5,878 nt of DNA, taken from NCBI GenBank assembly GCA_022827045.1, contig JAJDTQ010000278.1, positions 1 through 5,878 on the forward strand, written 5' to 3'. This DNA comes from Candidatus Binatia bacterium. GTDB taxonomy: Bacteria; Desulfobacterota_B; Binatia; UBA9968; JAJDTQ01. A model generated the notes under the pieces. The model saw only the letters and a program-made list of their open reading frames with translations. It was not told where the DNA came from and did no database searches. The translations under genes were made by a program, and so were the position numbers. Shown here one piece after another: positions 1 to 4,866 of this stretch (position 1 is its first letter; each line of letters starts with the position of its first letter).

Positions 1-21
1 ATCGCAGCTTGACGACACGTC

Positions 22-459
22 CTAAGCCATGGCCCGCGCTCGTCTCGACAACCACGCCGTTTCCTGTCGAGAAAGTCGCGCCATCACCTGCGGCGGATGA
101 AACCCGTGCGAGAGTTCCCGCAGCTTGTCAATTCCAATTTCGCGCCGCTTTATTACATCGGAGAGAACCAACGCCAAGGCACGACTCGTTCCCCTAAAGT
201 ACTCATCAAATTCGCGTCGGCTCACCGCCGCGCAACCCCTATAAGTTTTCCACACTGCAGCAGGCGTCCCCCTAATGATGTCGGCAACAATCGCTGAACC
301 GACGATTGCTCCTAGAGGGAGCGTTGCATAGATCCAGAGTCTCGTTCCCTGCCCGATTGTTGGAATTCTACGACGCAACTCTACCGTCTTGGTACCGGCC
401 AGTATCGCCCGCGCATAATTTGGCTTGATTGAAATTAACGCTTCGTCGCCGTTTCTCAC
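22..459 (-). CDS. ASCH-domain protein (PUA superfamily), coupled to the GNAT-PIN gene
   Basis: This is a complete 145-residue protein, the usual size for a stand-alone ASCH domain. The ASCH signature is clear near the N-terminus: K12-P, then A-I-L-A-G-T-K-T-V-E-L-R at residues 18-29, giving the family G-x-K-x-x-E-x-R pattern (G22, K24, E27, R29). A W-I-Y-A strand follows at 42-45, then A-I-V-G-S-A at 51-56, where the core beta-barrel continues. No signal peptide or membrane segment is seen. Known ASCH proteins bind RNA or nucleosides; some are RNases (ZmASCH), and E. coli YqfB is an N4-acetylcytidine amidohydrolase that uses a lysine. The start is GTG at 459, chosen because GTGA overlaps the TGA of the upstream gene and a GGGGG ribosome site lies 8 bases before it. 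The product should be made together with the GNAT-PIN protein. Domain assignment is firm; substrate and activity are unknown. Confidence 0.88.
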   Translation of the reverse strand: MRNGDEALISIKPNYARAILAGTKTVELRRRIPTIGQGTRLWIYATLPLGAIVGSAIVADIIRGTPAAVWKTYRGCAAVSRREFDEYFRGTSRALALVLSDVIKRREIGIDKLRELSHGFHPPQVMARLSRQETAWLSRRARAMA

Positions 460-2603
460 TCACCCCACCCCCTATCCAAGATACTGGCCACTGTGCAACT
501 CGATACCCGCTTAGCGGTAACCAGGTTCGCGTTGTCCACCGCCCCTGCTTTTTTCAGCCAATCGAGAGGCACCGGCCTCGGCAGGAGGAAGGTGTTCTCG
601 AAGCTCGTTACAAGTAGTTCATCGCTCTTCGAAAAACTGCCTACTTCGACAACCAAGCGCCTTCGCGACTCTTTGGGAATATCCGCCTTGTTTCTAATCT
701 CAGCGTCGACGATACGGGCAACCGCGACAATGCAACCCCTGCCGCCACGGTTCATCGACTCGTAGAATAGAATGGGTGACTCAGGGCGCATAGCATTCAC
801 CGCGCGTGGTGTATTCACGTACACCCGTTGAGATCGAAATCCTGCATCCTTGTCATGAACAAGACCAAGAGACATCTGTGTGTCGGCACCCAAGAGATCC
901 TTCGAATAGTCTCGCGTTATCGGGACAATAACGCCGTCTTGATCGGCCCGTATTAGAAGCGTCGGCCCCAACAGATTTTCGAGGCCCTTGAGGGACAGGC
1001 TGATCTCTTCACCCTGACCCGTCTTGACAGAAAATCTTTCTGCGGCAGGACCTGTTGGCATTTCCGCGGGCAATTCCAAACCCGTCCGTAGCCTTAGCTC
1101 TCGGGTGGCGGCTTTCCAGTTGGTGATCGTGACCGGGCGTCCCATTACCACCTTAACGAAAGTCGACGTGGAAGGCTGGCGCACGAAACCGCACGCTCGT
1201 GCAGCTGTAGTCACCGTCGACTGCCCTGCCACACGCTCCAATTCGATCACCCTCGCACCTGTCGCACTTGCCCTACGCAACATCGCGTCAAGTAAATGGT
1301 CAACGTACAATTCAACGTCCAACGTTTCTGGTCGACCATGAATGAATAACCGGCAAACCGGTTGTGGTGTCCTGGGCTCAAGCAGTACAGCGCAGGCTAC
1401 TACATCGTCGTTCCGAGATATCGCCATCCGGGTGAATTCAAAAGAATGTCCCCCGTCCGCGGCGAATTCATCCACCAATCCCCGCGGCAGGCTCTGATCC
1501 TCCATGTATCCTCGGACGGTTTGTGCACTCACGTCAGCACAAACAAACCCGGCACCGTACCGCGGCTCCAGCGGACGAGCAGCGTCGGAAGGAAGGAGCA
1601 TCAACACTTCGTCCACTGATAGGATGTCGATGCCGAATCGTCTCAGCAACTCGGTGCGGCTTCGCAGGATAGCACCATCCCTAGTTACGAACGCCGACGC
1701 ACGAGCGAGTGCGGCATGCGCAAGGTGGCTGGCATCGCTCCACGCTTGGGTACGTCGAGCCCCCGATGCCCGGCCTTGGATGAAGACAACGTCATGCATC
1801 TGATCCCGAAGTTCCTGAAGTTGAGATGCATCAGCCTTGGGTATGCGTGGCAAACGCAAAGCGAGTTGAAGAACTGGATCCTCGGCGGCTTGCTCTGATG
1901 TTCGCCGGAGCTCCCCTACAAACTCATCCGCAACGGCGAGACGCACTGTGTGGGCAAGGGCAGCACCAAACAACTTTCGTGCGGACTCCGACTGAGAACG
2001 GTTGAGTACCAAGTCAAAGTAGACATTGAGGTCTAGTGCAAAGAAAGGCGCTTCCCGCGCGCTTCGTCCACGGATTCCCAAGTCGATTTCATCTGCAGTA
2101 CCGTTTTCTCTTGAGAATAGCGTGTCCGTATCTAGTTCGCGGACATGGACGACGATCTGTCTATGCCGCGACGCGCCTCCCGGTTGCGTCCGCACGCGTT
2201 CAAAACCATTCTTTCGATAGAAGGCAAGCGCGGGGCTCAAGTCCGACGCCACGTAGGCGCGAATCGTCATGAAGCCGAATTGCTCAAGTTCATCGACCAA
2301 AGCGCGAATGAGGGCGGAGGCCACGCCTTGCTGCCGATAGGAGTTGATCGTCGCTATCTGTTGGATCTTTGCGTAGGGAAACACGCCGCTGTAAAGTACA
2401 TAGCCAACCAATCGTTGTCGATCGAGAGATCGATCAAAGAGCGCCAGCAACTTCCCTCGAACAATCCCGTCCCGCAACGCCTGCTCCGGCAGGAACCCGA
2501 GCCCGCTTCTCTCGGAATCGGCTAGAGCGACGATTTCCTCGATGTGAGCGAGAATACGCTCCGGTTCTCTTTCTATGAATAGGTCGGGGCGCATGGGATG
2601 CAT
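456..2603 (-). CDS. Multidomain GNAT acetyltransferase - PIN ribonuclease - GNAT-like - PUA/EVE-like protein
   Basis: This 715-residue, apparently cytosolic protein has four readable modules. Residues about 8-156 are a GNAT N-acetyltransferase with the acetyl-CoA loop R90-Q-Q-G93-V-A95 and the late A-L-A-F-Y-R-K-N-G-F motif (125-134; Y129 is the usual general acid position). Residues about 186-340 are a PIN domain: L-D191-L-N-V-Y-F-D, an acidic E227 or E231, W-S-D290, and V-T-R-D309, together the expected metal-binding acids. Residues about 350-488 resemble a second GNAT fold but lack the R/Q-x-x-G-x-G/A loop. Residues about 540-712 look like a PUA/EVE-type domain (R-V-Y-V-N-T-P-R 593-600, I-L-F-Y-E-S 611-616, I-V-A-V-A-R-I-V 625-632). 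A TGA lies two codons before the ATG at 2603. ATG at 2594 is an alternative and sits better behind a weak GAGAG. GNATs acetylate proteins, tRNA or small molecules and PIN domains cut RNA; the target here is unknown. Confidence 0.85.
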   Translation of the reverse strand: MHPMRPDLFIEREPERILAHIEEIVALADSERSGLGFLPEQALRDGIVRGKLLALFDRSLDRQRLVGYVLYSGVFPYAKIQQIATINSYRQQGVASALIRALVDELEQFGFMTIRAYVASDLSPALAFYRKNGFERVRTQPGGASRHRQIVVHVRELDTDTLFSRENGTADEIDLGIRGRSAREAPFFALDLNVYFDLVLNRSQSESARKLFGAALAHTVRLAVADEFVGELRRTSEQAAEDPVLQLALRLPRIPKADASQLQELRDQMHDVVFIQGRASGARRTQAWSDASHLAHAALARASAFVTRDGAILRSRTELLRRFGIDILSVDEVLMLLPSDAARPLEPRYGAGFVCADVSAQTVRGYMEDQSLPRGLVDEFAADGGHSFEFTRMAISRNDDVVACAVLLEPRTPQPVCRLFIHGRPETLDVELYVDHLLDAMLRRASATGARVIELERVAGQSTVTTAARACGFVRQPSTSTFVKVVMGRPVTITNWKAATRELRLRTGLELPAEMPTGPAAERFSVKTGQGEEISLSLKGLENLLGPTLLIRADQDGVIVPITRDYSKDLLGADTQMSLGLVHDKDAGFRSQRVYVNTPRAVNAMRPESPILFYESMNRGGRGCIVAVARIVDAEIRNKADIPKESRRRLVVEVGSFSKSDELLVTSFENTFLLPRPVPLDWLKKAGAVDNANLVTAKRVSSCTVASILDRGWGE
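468..472 (-). promoter_or_regulatory. Ribosome binding site deciding the GTG start of the ASCH gene
   Basis: A GGGGG run on the minus strand lies inside the last codons of the GNAT-PIN gene, 8 bases before the GTG at 459. The good spacing together with the GTGA stop/start overlap supports reinitiation at GTG rather than at a downstream codon. Confidence 0.5.
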
Positions 2604-2635
2604 CTCTCAGCTAGCACAGGAGCCGTCTCCCAGTA

Positions 2636-2655
2636 TTGACAGGCTATCCCGTCAA
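2636..2655. repeat. Inverted repeat TTGAC-N10-GTCAA before the GNAT-PIN gene
   Basis: Perfect 5-base arms (2636-2640 and 2651-2655) surround a 10-base spacer, 33 bases upstream of the ATG at 2603. The spacing would suit a dimeric regulator or a leader hairpin. With arms this short it could be chance; the position just ahead of a potentially toxic gene is the only reason to record it. Confidence 0.3.
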
Positions 2656-2760
2656 CTCGAGAATCAACCACCGTTTGTCTACAACCTTCCACGACTTCCT
2701 CCAATTCCCCAGACGGCGGCCTTCAGCGATCTAATTTATCTTCGGAATTGTAGCTGGAGA

Positions 2761-2789
2761 AGTAAACTCACCGGAACGCCGCAGGTCAA
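2761..2789 (-). promoter_or_regulatory. Candidate sigma-70-like promoter for the GNAT-PIN/ASCH unit
   Basis: On the minus strand, TTGACC (2789-2784, 5 of 6 to consensus) is followed after a 17-base spacer by TTTACT (2766-2761, 4 of 6). Transcription would begin near 2754 and leave a leader of about 150 bases before the ATG at 2603. A TACAAT and an AT-rich GATAAATTAGAT follow just downstream and could serve as other -10 elements. The 301-base gap 2604-2904 holds no gene I can support. Promoter consensus in this organism is unknown, so this is tentative. Confidence 0.3.
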
Positions 2790-2904
2790 ACCTCTGTTTT
2801 CTCTGTCTCTGAAGGTCACGTATCGTTCCGCAAACTGTCGTGCAACCCGGCACTTACGATGCGCCATTCCGGGAGTTGGAAACAATACTCCGAATCCATC
2901 GCTT

Positions 2905-3486
2905 TCATGCCCTTGTGATGTCGACACAAATGCTCGTTGCCCTCCACCCCTGATAGTTGCCGCTAAAACGCCGATCCATAGGGTAGTCCCAAGGCTGGCC
3001 GCGGGAAACATTCACCGTCAAGGCATTCAGTCCTCGACGCCACTCCTCGATATCCTTCTCGGCCCGTTCCAGCCTCTCATCAAGACGTCCAGCACCGTTT
3101 GCGATGAATACCGCTAGGACTCCACGGGGCACATTCCCATTTTCGACGAGTCCTCTGAGCCGGTTCAGGTCATCTTCGCAATCAGTCCTATTCCAATCCC
3201 GTTTCGCCTCAATGACACATTCCGGATTCCCATCATCGAGCAGCGCAATGTCCACCCGGCGACCGTCGTCGGCACTATTGGCCGAAATCTCAGCAAAGGC
3301 CATCTCGAGCCGGAGACTCTTCTCGTCAACACCTTGACGTTGCTCCGCCACGGTCCTGGCGATGCCGACGACCATCAGCCCCTCGCAAGCAGAATCGTTC
3401 AACCAGCATTCGCCTCGCGACCACGTCTCGTAATCAAGGTTTGCGTTGTGGATGCCTTCGTGTATCCCGCGGATGAGTTCGCGCAT
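2905..3486 (-). CDS. PD-(D/E)XK nuclease-like protein, function unknown
   Basis: Read from ATG at 3486 this is 193 residues. The nuclease core is visible: R-V-D79-I-A-L, then 13 residues later E93-A-K95, the classic D...ExK of the restriction-endonuclease fold. E35 in an A-C-E-G-L-M-V-V segment is placed like the helix-A glutamate of this fold. The N-terminus (M-R-E-L-I...N-L-D-Y-E-T-W-S) resembles how I recall small nuclease-like proteins of this kind beginning. The frame stays open upstream to a TTG at 3651 (248 residues), but that stretch includes an AT-rich direct repeat and looks non-coding. The ATG has a GGGAAG ribosome-like site 8 bases ahead. No methyltransferase or helicase partner is in the window, so a classical restriction system is not shown. 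It lies 301 bases upstream of the GNAT-PIN gene in the same direction. Whether it cuts DNA, and which DNA, is unknown. Confidence 0.75.
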   Translation of the reverse strand: MRELIRGIHEGIHNANLDYETWSRGECWLNDSACEGLMVVGIARTVAEQRQGVDEKSLRLEMAFAEISANSADDGRRVDIALLDDGNPECVIEAKRDWNRTDCEDDLNRLRGLVENGNVPRGVLAVFIANGAGRLDERLERAEKDIEEWRRGLNALTVNVSRGQPWDYPMDRRFSGNYQGWRATSICVDITRA

Positions 3487-3578
3487 AATTGTTGCTTCCC
3501 GAAACGCGTGTGACAGTGCCGAAGTAACATTGTCGAACGGCCACCCCGGTCGAACCAAGGGGCCAAGGATGGGGTCAA

Positions 3579-3604
3579 TTGAATTGTGATTCTCTTGAAT
3601 TGTG
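3579..3604. repeat. 10-base direct repeat TTGAATTGTG, 16 bases apart
   Basis: Two perfect copies (3579-3588 and 3595-3604) sit in an unusually AT-rich patch upstream of the nuclease-like gene. The start-to-start distance of 16 bases is about one and a half helical turns. If the gene begins at 3486 the repeat is in its leader or promoter region and may be a regulator site. If it begins at 3651 the repeat encodes residues near 16-24. The rest of 3487-3705 shows no other gene. Confidence 0.5.
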
Positions 3605-3705
3605 GTTTCAACCACTTCGCGGCGCGGACCCTGATTGGCGGTACCGTGCAAATCGCCAATCTCTGGCGGACAAACCGTGCGGTATGCGAGGTGACCGAAA
3701 ACGAA

Positions 3706-4143
<438 letters not shown>

Positions 4144-4185
4144 CGGTTCGGTTCTCCATGTTCGGGAAGCTCCCGTGCTCACCCG

Positions 4186-4398
4186 CTAGAATTCGTCCGC
4201 GTCGATCCCGAGGTCGGCGAGCATCTTGGCGAGCAGTCCCTTGCCGATCTCCTTCTTTCGATCCTTGACGGTCGTCTTGCGATCGCCCGCGTAGAGCGTT
4301 CCGTGCGACCCCGGCCCTTCCGACACCACGAAGCGAATCGCCAGATTCCGGGCCCTTGCCCATTTGCGGACCCTGGCGATGAACTGCCGCCCGGTCAT
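4186..4398 (-). CDS. hicA: HicA-family toxin (mRNA interferase)
   Basis: This 70-residue protein has the double-stranded-RNA-binding-like HicA fold. The hallmark G-S-H-G-T-L-Y at 30-36 carries the catalytic histidine H32. It is followed by K-D-R-K-K-E-I-G-K-G-L-L-A-K-M-L at 45-60, typical of HicA proteins with a longer helix 1. HicA cleaves mRNA (and tmRNA in E. coli) when free of HicB. All key positions look intact, so the toxin should be active. The ATG at 4398 has only a GGCGGG directly touching it, not a spaced ribosome site. This fits the candidate promoter placed so close that the transcript would begin at or near the start codon. hicB follows 42 bases downstream. A separate ribosome site for hicB would help to keep antitoxin in excess. 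Confidence 0.93.
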   Translation of the reverse strand: MTGRQFIARVRKWARARNLAIRFVVSEGPGSHGTLYAGDRKTTVKDRKKEIGKGLLAKMLADLGIDADEF

Positions 4399-4593: not shown

Positions 4594-4866
4594 CTAACGC
4601 AATCCATCCCGTAGGGCCTTGGCGGCCTTGAACGAGGGGGCCTTCGACGCCGCGATGGCGACGCTCTCCCCCGTCCGCGGATTCCGCCCCGTCCGCGCCG
4701 GCCGGCTCTTCGTCGAAAACGTGCCGAACCCCCGGACGGACACCGTGTCCCCGTTCGCCAGAGCGTCCCGGATGACCTCGAACACCGCATCCACCGCGCC
4801 CTCCGCCTGGGCCTTCTTCAGCGAGACCCGGCCGGCGACGTGGACGGCGATATCGGACTTCCTCAT
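4594..4866 (-). CDS. HU/IHF-family nucleoid DNA-binding protein
   Basis: This is a complete 90-residue protein, the standard HU length. N-terminal helices M-R-K-S-D-I-A (1-7) through about residue 38 form the dimer base. The family signature follows: V-R-G-F-G-T-F at 44-50, then the DNA-binding arm [12 protein letters not shown] at 55-66, with P63 at the position that intercalates between base pairs. It ends with the conserved [10 protein letters not shown] at 77-86. HU dimers bend and constrain DNA in the nucleoid and assist recombination and replication. The ATG at 4866 is backed by AGGGGG (4881-4876) 9 bases ahead. An inverted repeat lies in its leader. It has the high GC of the right half, so it is probably not part of the left accessory segment. 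It could be the main HU or one of several paralogues. Confidence 0.96.

What the first reader, a model, noticed from the sequence alone, without database searches (positions are those of the whole stretch)
22..2603. Coupled GNAT-PIN-GNAT-PUA protein and ASCH protein: candidate undescribed RNA-targeting system
The sequence shows one 715-residue protein carrying a GNAT acetyl-CoA loop, four PIN-type acids and a PUA/EVE-like C-terminus, whose stop codon overlaps the start of an ASCH gene (GTGA). GNAT toxins acting on tRNA (TacT, AtaT), PIN toxins (VapC) and ASCH RNases or acetylcytidine hydrolases are known separately. One acetyltransferase plus RNase plus two PUA-superfamily modules in a two-gene unit suggests a system that marks, reads and cuts RNA, as a toxin-antitoxin or anti-phage module. 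I know of no named system with this layout, though similar large GNAT-annotated proteins next to ASCH genes seem to be widespread.
Basis: partly seen in the sequence, partly recalled or inferred. Interest (0 to 1): 0.78.

Follow-up and report, generated by a model that had tools for sequence, protein, structure and literature searches.

The report
Predicted four-domain toxin with ASCH partner
This is a two-gene unit, probably a bacterial toxin–antitoxin or anti-phage module, and it is an unusual four-domain version of a kind already predicted in print, with an extra acetyltransferase-type domain added to the front.

Summary
The minus strand encodes a 715-residue protein (456-2603) whose stop overlaps an ASCH gene (22-459). 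Two structure models, fold searches and profile matches support GNAT1-PIN-GNAT2-EVE/PUA. The four PIN acids are identical in 118 of 118 aligned sequences.

"Undescribed" is wrong. (PIN)-GNAT-EVE + ASCH operons were described as predicted toxin-antitoxin modules by Bell et al. 2020 (PMC7641849), who credit Iyer et al. 2013. PADLOC lists candidate PDC-M11. An Escherichia phage record annotates the short form as GevT toxin/GevA antitoxin.

What differs: residues 188-709 align end to end with PIN-GNAT-EVE proteins, so this protein carries an additional N-terminal GNAT; the old GNAT lacks the cofactor-loop motif. These proteins' ASCH partners form one clade (95/89). All 6 loci found by toxin search have ASCH next door; four Zymomonas-like genomes keep ASCH with no toxin nearby, as expected for an antitoxin.

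Likely mechanism (inferred): a PIN ribonuclease toxin, aimed by EVE, conditioned by GNAT1, restrained by ASCH. The genes lie in a GC-poor block (54-57% against 66-70%).

The parts
456..2603 (-). 715-aa GNAT1-PIN-GNAT2-EVE protein, predicted toxin/effector
2109..2591 (-). GNAT1 (residues 5-165), R90xxG93xA acetyl-CoA loop
1590..2048 (-). PIN domain (residues 186-338), acids D191, E231, D290, D309
   Evidence: PIN_3 E 1.4e-4, below cut-off; acids 118/118, all acidic in 8 of 8 distant relatives
1134..1556 (-). GNAT2 (residues 350-490), GNAT fold without an RxxGxG/A loop
462..944 (-). EVE/PUA-superfamily domain (residues 554-714), invariant F613-Y614-E615-S616 in alignment A2
22..459 (-). 145-aa ASCH protein, predicted antitoxin/partner; start overlaps the toxin stop (GTGA)
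   Evidence: PDC-M11B E 1.1e-26; ZmASCH E 1e-29; GevA 36% identity, E 6e-24
1..3700 (.). GC-poorer block (54-57%) holding the pair and a nuclease-like gene, against 66-70% in windows from 3601 on

Best explanation
A toxin-antitoxin-type anti-phage/stress module, a four-domain relative of the (PIN)-GNAT-EVE/ASCH kind (GevTA, PDC-M11). Proposed working: the PIN domain is the killing endoribonuclease; the EVE/PUA domain docks it on modified RNA (a tRNA is the first guess); GNAT1 binds acetyl-CoA and either acetylates the bound RNA or aminoacyl-tRNA or gates the nuclease; GNAT2 is a structural relic; the ASCH protein, made from the overlapping gene, keeps it off until infection or stress. Shown here by computation: domain folds (GNAT1, GNAT2, PUA), intact PIN acids, tight linkage, a shared lineage with its own ASCH clade, patchy distribution. 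Inferred: toxicity, target, antitoxin role, trigger.
For: Colinear profile alignment of residues 188-709 with PIN-GNAT-EVE (E 2.6e-8 for a single comparison). Homologous ASCH annotated as GevA antitoxin beside GevT toxin in a lambdoid phage. ASCH adjacent in 6 of 6 loci found by toxin search (two of the six, in G642 and G437, had also come up in the ASCH search). ASCH without a toxin in the 10-16 kb fetched in 4 of 4 Zymomonas-like genomes. A natural PIN-GNAT-EVE-ASCH single-ORF fusion, L042. PIN acids conserved. Patchy: 3 of 385 class genomes at E 1e-60 and 2 of 398 phylum genomes at E 1e-40. Mobile or defence-type neighbours at 5 of 9 four-domain loci: integrase plus Eco57I methylase (L059), nSTAND3 (L014), MvaI/BcnI plus Vsr (L032), HNH (L045), HicAB-like plus nuclease-like gene (window). 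GC break.
Against: No experiment on any four-domain member was found. GevT/GevA roles are known to me only from a record's labels; 'GevT toxin' and 'GevA antitoxin' are in no held paper. Neighbour counts have no base-rate control, and only part of the neighbours was scanned (L032 10, L045 5, L034 3, L059 2, L014, L044 and L060 1 each, L033 none); the window's HicA, HicB and nuclease-like matches are below cut-off; L034 sits among housekeeping genes. The whole toxin matches PDC-M11A models only at its C-terminus. Direct BLAST of the toxin to GevT finds nothing. PIN alone and GNAT2 alone compare weakly with the canonical proteins (E 0.009 and 0.16). Whether the Zymomonas-like genomes hold a toxin elsewhere was not tested.
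Confidence: 0.62

Rival explanations
1. The acetyltransferase is the toxin (aminoacyl-tRNA acetylation, as in TacT/AtaT) and the PIN domain is a helper or safety device.
For: GNAT1 keeps the acetyl-CoA loop in most aligned relatives and sits first in the chain; short GevT has no PIN yet is labelled a toxin. Bell et al. suggest aminoacyl-tRNA targets for GNAT-EVE.
Against: In 8 distant relatives the loop Gly is lost in 2 and Tyr129 is Trp in 3, while all PIN acids stay acidic. GNAT1 is nearest in fold to N-alpha-acetyltransferases.
Confidence: 0.2
2. The ASCH protein is a second ribonuclease, like ZmASCH, acting with the large protein rather than against it.
For: ZmASCH is homologous (E 1e-29) and degrades ssRNA in vitro (PMC5615036, passages).
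Against: Of the three ZmASCH residues reported to matter, only Tyr47 (Y44 here) is kept in the window protein; Lys53 is G50 and Ser128 is V125. GevA is labelled antitoxin. ASCH is kept without a nearby toxin in Zymomonas-like genomes.
Confidence: 0.12
3. The ASCH protein erases a base acetylation made by the GNAT (YqfB-like deacylase).
For: ASCH protein YqfB hydrolyses N4-acetylcytidine (PMC6972931, passages); a K-x-x-E-x-R motif lies where YqfB has K-x-x-T-x-R.
Against: The YqfB nucleophile Thr24 is replaced by Glu27, invariant in 38 of 38 ASCH rows (matched by motif spacing, not by an alignment tool).
Confidence: 0.05
4. A housekeeping RNA-modification or quality-control enzyme with no conflict role.
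For: GNAT1 resembles RimI/Ard1; one locus lies among metabolic genes (L034).
Against: Very patchy distribution, GC-distinct block, integrase and restriction neighbours in several loci.
Confidence: 0.1

Closest known systems
(PIN)-GNAT-EVE + ASCH predicted toxin-antitoxin operons (Iyer 2013, not seen; Bell 2020, PMC7641849, passages and section 10 seen)
   Same: PIN, GNAT-like and C-terminal EVE in the same order; ASCH gene in the same operon; patchy, partly beside restriction systems
   Different: An additional N-terminal GNAT with the acetyl-CoA loop; the original GNAT lacks the KLGE/RGRKLGE-type motif of canonical members; PIN and GNAT2 strongly diverged; ASCH without HTH
PADLOC candidate PDC-M11 (A/B)
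   Same: ASCH matches PDC-M11B along most of its length (E 1.1e-26); EVE end matches PDC-M11A (E 4.3e-7)
   Different: Whole-protein match to PDC-M11A absent: only profile 310-464 of 486 aligns, whereas four ordinary PIN-GNAT-EVE proteins match nearly end to end at 1e-115 or better
GevT/GevA of Escherichia phage PhiR47_2 (PV340567)
   Same: GNAT-EVE gene overlapping an ASCH gene; ASCH proteins 36% identical
   Different: GevT is 357 aa without PIN or extra GNAT; no BLAST-level similarity to the window toxin, only profile-level
ZmASCH (ZMO0922; 5GUQ)
   Same: Homologue of the ASCH partner (E 1e-29); conserved Tyr47
   Different: In Zymomonas-like genomes no toxin gene stands near it; Lys53 and Ser128 not kept in the window protein
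TacT/AtaT GNAT toxins and VapC PIN toxins (recalled)
   Same: GNAT and PIN folds, used there as toxins
   Different: Both combined in one chain with EVE; ASCH instead of RHH/HTH or VapB antitoxins

Membership tests
(PIN)-GNAT-EVE/ASCH modules as described by Bell 2020 | EVE/PUA domain at the C-terminus of a GNAT-like domain | tested here: met
   Model of 345-715: GNAT fold then PUA/EVE fold
(PIN)-GNAT-EVE/ASCH modules as described by Bell 2020 | PIN domain N-terminal to that GNAT (often present) | tested here: met
   Pfam match below cut-off and PIN fold not searched alone
(PIN)-GNAT-EVE/ASCH modules as described by Bell 2020 | ASCH gene in the same operon (almost all, per that paper) | tested here: met
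   Window overlap GTGA; 6 of 6 toxin-found loci
(PIN)-GNAT-EVE/ASCH modules as described by Bell 2020 | Toxin and antitoxin activity (predicted, not shown, also in that paper) | not testable with these tools
   Needs expression assays
PDC-M11 as defined by PADLOC models | Near full-length match of the large protein to a PDC-M11A model | tested here: not met
   Only residues 538-691 align; so it is not filed as PDC-M11A, only as a relative
PDC-M11 as defined by PADLOC models | Partner matches PDC-M11B | tested here: met
   E 1.1e-26, profile 2-125 of 132
VapBC | PIN toxin with an adjacent VapB-type antitoxin (recalled) | tested here: not met
   Adjacent overlapping gene is ASCH
TacTA/AtaRT-type GNAT TA | Single GNAT toxin with an RHH-type antitoxin (recalled) | tested here: not met
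   Partner is ASCH; GNAT is one of four domains
YqfB-type ASCH amidohydrolase | Thr-Lys-Glu triad, nucleophile Thr24 (PMC6972931) | tested here: not met
   Motif position is an invariant Glu27; matched by motif spacing to the residues given in the paper
ZmASCH-type ssRNase | Tyr47, Lys53, Ser128 contribute to binding/cleavage (PMC5615036) | tested here: not met
   Only Tyr47 kept (Y44); G50 and V125 at the other two

The most novel reading that the evidence does not exclude
A distinct lineage in which the acetyltransferase function of a PIN-GNAT-EVE toxin moved to a newly gained N-terminal GNAT while the old GNAT decayed into a scaffold, giving an acetyl-CoA-dependent, modification-reading tRNA/RNA nuclease with its own co-inherited ASCH antitoxin: marking, reading and cutting RNA in one chain.
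Probability: 0.28. Interest if true: 0.72.

Novelty: new variant of a known kind. Interest (0 to 1): 0.5.

Why it matters
PIN-GNAT-EVE/ASCH modules are predicted to be toxins or anti-phage systems, but Bell et al. 2020 state that none of their modules had been characterised then. The four-domain lineage separates the questions: which GNAT is active, whether PIN or GNAT kills, and whether ASCH is the antitoxin. It also suggests that the solved ZmASCH RNase is an orphan relative of these ASCH partners, which gives the published structure a testable biological context.

Tried and rejected
"Undescribed system" was rejected after PADLOC, Bell et al. 2020 and the GevT/GevA record. Viral contigs: 185 pattern matches, none confirmed. 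Phage records: no match to the whole toxin. Plasmids: one record. The genome-contig scan brought 13 loci that match only within residues 35-181 (the GNAT1 part); these were not counted. Literature: PDC-M11 in no held paper. 'GevT toxin', 'GevA antitoxin': no held paper; 'GevTA' only in three papers unrelated by title. Bare GevT/GevA/GevAT match 10,572 papers; the 15 listed were unrelated by title, as were the nine besides Bell et al. among the 10 listed of 57. The one PhiR47 paper (PMC13190303, one passage) has no 'Gev'. 'GNAT-PIN' and 'two GNAT' have zero uses in Bell et al., and 'GNAT-PIN' none in the 10 listed papers. Passages of two defence-genomics papers (PMC12839542, PMC10853773) did not show the four-domain layout. 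Rfam and tRNA scans of the window were empty. Promoter and terminator scans gave about what shuffles give. No repeats of 16 bases or more mark an insertion boundary. A defence-neighbour enrichment test with same-genome controls was considered and not run, so the neighbour counts are anecdotal. Domain-by-domain profile comparison with canonical proteins is strong only for EVE (E 3e-7); PIN alone (E 0.009) and GNAT2 alone (E 0.16, or 0.06 with the GevT-containing set) are weak, and the case rests on the single colinear alignment.

Full report
What is there. The minus strand holds a 715-residue ORF (456-2603) and a 145-residue ORF (22-459) that overlap by GTGA. Pfam finds GNAT (62-134, above cut-off), PIN_3 (190-309, E 1.4e-4, below cut-off), EVE (602-705, E 0.0096, below cut-off) and, in gene 2, ASCH (above cut-off).

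Conservation. The alignment A2 holds the window and 117 of the 120 relatives listed (three fragments left out). D191, E231, D290 and D309 are identical in 118 of 118; R90 118, G93 113, Y129 118. In 8 more distant four-domain proteins every PIN acid stays acidic (the fourth is D or E), R90 is kept in 7, G93 in 6 and Tyr129 in 5 (Trp in 3). GNAT2 shows no RxxGxG/A loop in the window or in any of the 8. Canonical proteins carry KLGE-, RGRKLGE- or similar motifs at that place, GevT a weaker RGQR form. The most constant catalytic part is therefore the PIN domain.

Relation to known modules. A profile of the family aligns from residue 188 to 709 with four PIN-GNAT-EVE proteins in one colinear match (probability 95, E 2.6e-8 for that single comparison); a set of eight that includes GevT aligns from 398 to 712 (probability 87, E 3.9e-6). 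Taken alone, EVE is significant (E 3e-7), PIN weak (E 0.009) and GNAT2 not significant (E 0.16 and 0.06). PADLOC matches the window's ASCH to PDC-M11B (E 1.1e-26) but the large protein only at its C-terminus to PDC-M11A (E 4.3e-7). Four ordinary PIN-GNAT-EVE proteins match PDC-M11A at 1e-115 or better over most of their length, while of six other four-domain proteins five match weakly (best E 9e-12) and L034 not at all. Escherichia phage PhiR47_2 labels its GNAT-EVE gene GevT toxin and its ASCH gene GevA antitoxin; these match PDC-M11A and B at E 2e-133 and 7e-52. Window ASCH and GevA are 36% identical; the toxins show no BLAST similarity. Bell et al. 2020 (PMC7641849; search passages and section 10 read) describe the PIN-GNAT-EVE/ASCH operons as predicted TA modules, the PIN forms often near type I restriction systems, and say no module had been characterised. 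I did not find the extra N-terminal GNAT in the passages read; the figures and Iyer et al. 2013 were not available.

Survey. Four-domain proteins: 3 of 385 genomes of one class at E 1e-60, 2 of 398 of the phylum at E 1e-40, 1 of 43 of one order, the same genome as, and one plasmid. All six of these loci have an ASCH ORF next to the toxin, from 14 bases of overlap to a gap of 2; two of the six had also been found by the ASCH search. Starting from ASCH (PDLC04425, E 1e-8), 11 of 398 genomes matched: 2 four-domain, 4 PIN-GNAT-EVE (one, L042, fused to ASCH in one ORF; one, L043, preceded by HTH-ASCH; in one, L041, ASCH has a C-terminal extension that I read as a P-loop ATPase), 3 GNAT-EVE, and 2 cut by contig ends. 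[quoted passage not shown] L035, L036 and L039 by length and sequence alone). From ZmASCH, 9 of 397 genomes of one family matched at E 1e-10: 4 copies of 99, 89, 77 and 61% identity, in genomes of about 2 Mb, have no four-domain toxin in the 10-16 kb fetched around them (the rest of those genomes was not searched for one), 2 are four-domain loci (L059, L060), L061 has PIN-GNAT-EVE by sequence, L054 is the L043 locus again, and L052 was not examined.

Lineage. In a tree of 22 ASCH proteins the 14 partners of four-domain proteins (window included) form one side of a branch (95/89; 96% of 200 bootstrap trees). Seven of the 14 are labelled only by a shared longest-contig length. L059, L060 and the Zymomonas-like copies were found later and are not in it. 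The tree has long branches, and its root is only a midpoint.

Context. GC is 54-57% in the 500-base windows of 1-3700 and 66-70% in those from 3601 on, with the change near 3600-3800. A nuclease-like ORF (2905-3651; HSDR_N E 0.0011, below cut-off) and hicA/hicB-like genes (also below cut-off) stand upstream. Elsewhere: phage-type integrase and Eco57I methylase on either side (L059), nSTAND3 protein next door (L014), MvaI/BcnI nuclease and Vsr within about 9 kb (L032), HNH gene next door (L045). The three L034 neighbours scanned are metabolic or cupin-type; for L044 and L060 one neighbour each was scanned without a defence match; L033 neighbours were not scanned. So 5 of 9 loci, without a base-rate control.

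ASCH chemistry. Of the ZmASCH residues reported to matter (Tyr47, Lys53, Ser128; passages of PMC5615036), only Tyr47 is kept in the window protein (Y44; G50 and V125 stand at the others). YqfB's nucleophile Thr24 (passages of PMC6972931) corresponds by motif spacing to Glu27, invariant in 38 of 38 rows. Both enzymatic readings of ASCH are weakened; a binding or antitoxin role is favoured. ASCH kept without a nearby toxin, and the toxin never without ASCH in six toxin-found loci, agree with this.

Verdict. A new four-domain variant of a known predicted toxin-antitoxin/anti-phage kind. Folds, linkage and lineage are supported by computation; toxicity, target and antitoxin action are inferred.

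Noticed in passing
window 2905-3651 (-): 248-aa ORF with a weak HSDR_N/PD-(D/E)XK-like match (E 0.0011, below cut-off) directly upstream of the toxin and inside the GC-poor block.
   Followed up: partly
window 3706-4398 (-): HicA-like (70 aa) and HicB-like (158 aa) genes in hicAB order, both below Pfam cut-offs, in the GC-rich part; an HU gene lies at 4594-4866.
   Followed up: no
L042 1234-3150 (+): Single 638-aa ORF that is PIN-GNAT-EVE fused to ASCH: both partners in one chain.
   Followed up: partly
L055-L058: Zymomonas-like genomes keep an ASCH of this family without a toxin nearby, beside similar flanking ORFs (one ArgJ-like in L055); ZmASCH, the solved RNase, is 99% identical to the L055 copy.
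   Followed up: partly
L041 8181-9158 (+): ASCH with a C-terminal extension that reads like a P-loop ATPase beside a PIN-GNAT-EVE gene; L061 has a separate AAA_17 gene (E 2.2e-12) after PIN-GNAT-EVE.
   Followed up: partly
L014 14120-14578 (+): ASCH ORF beside the Caulobacter plasmid toxin is missing from the PLSDB gene table.
   Followed up: no
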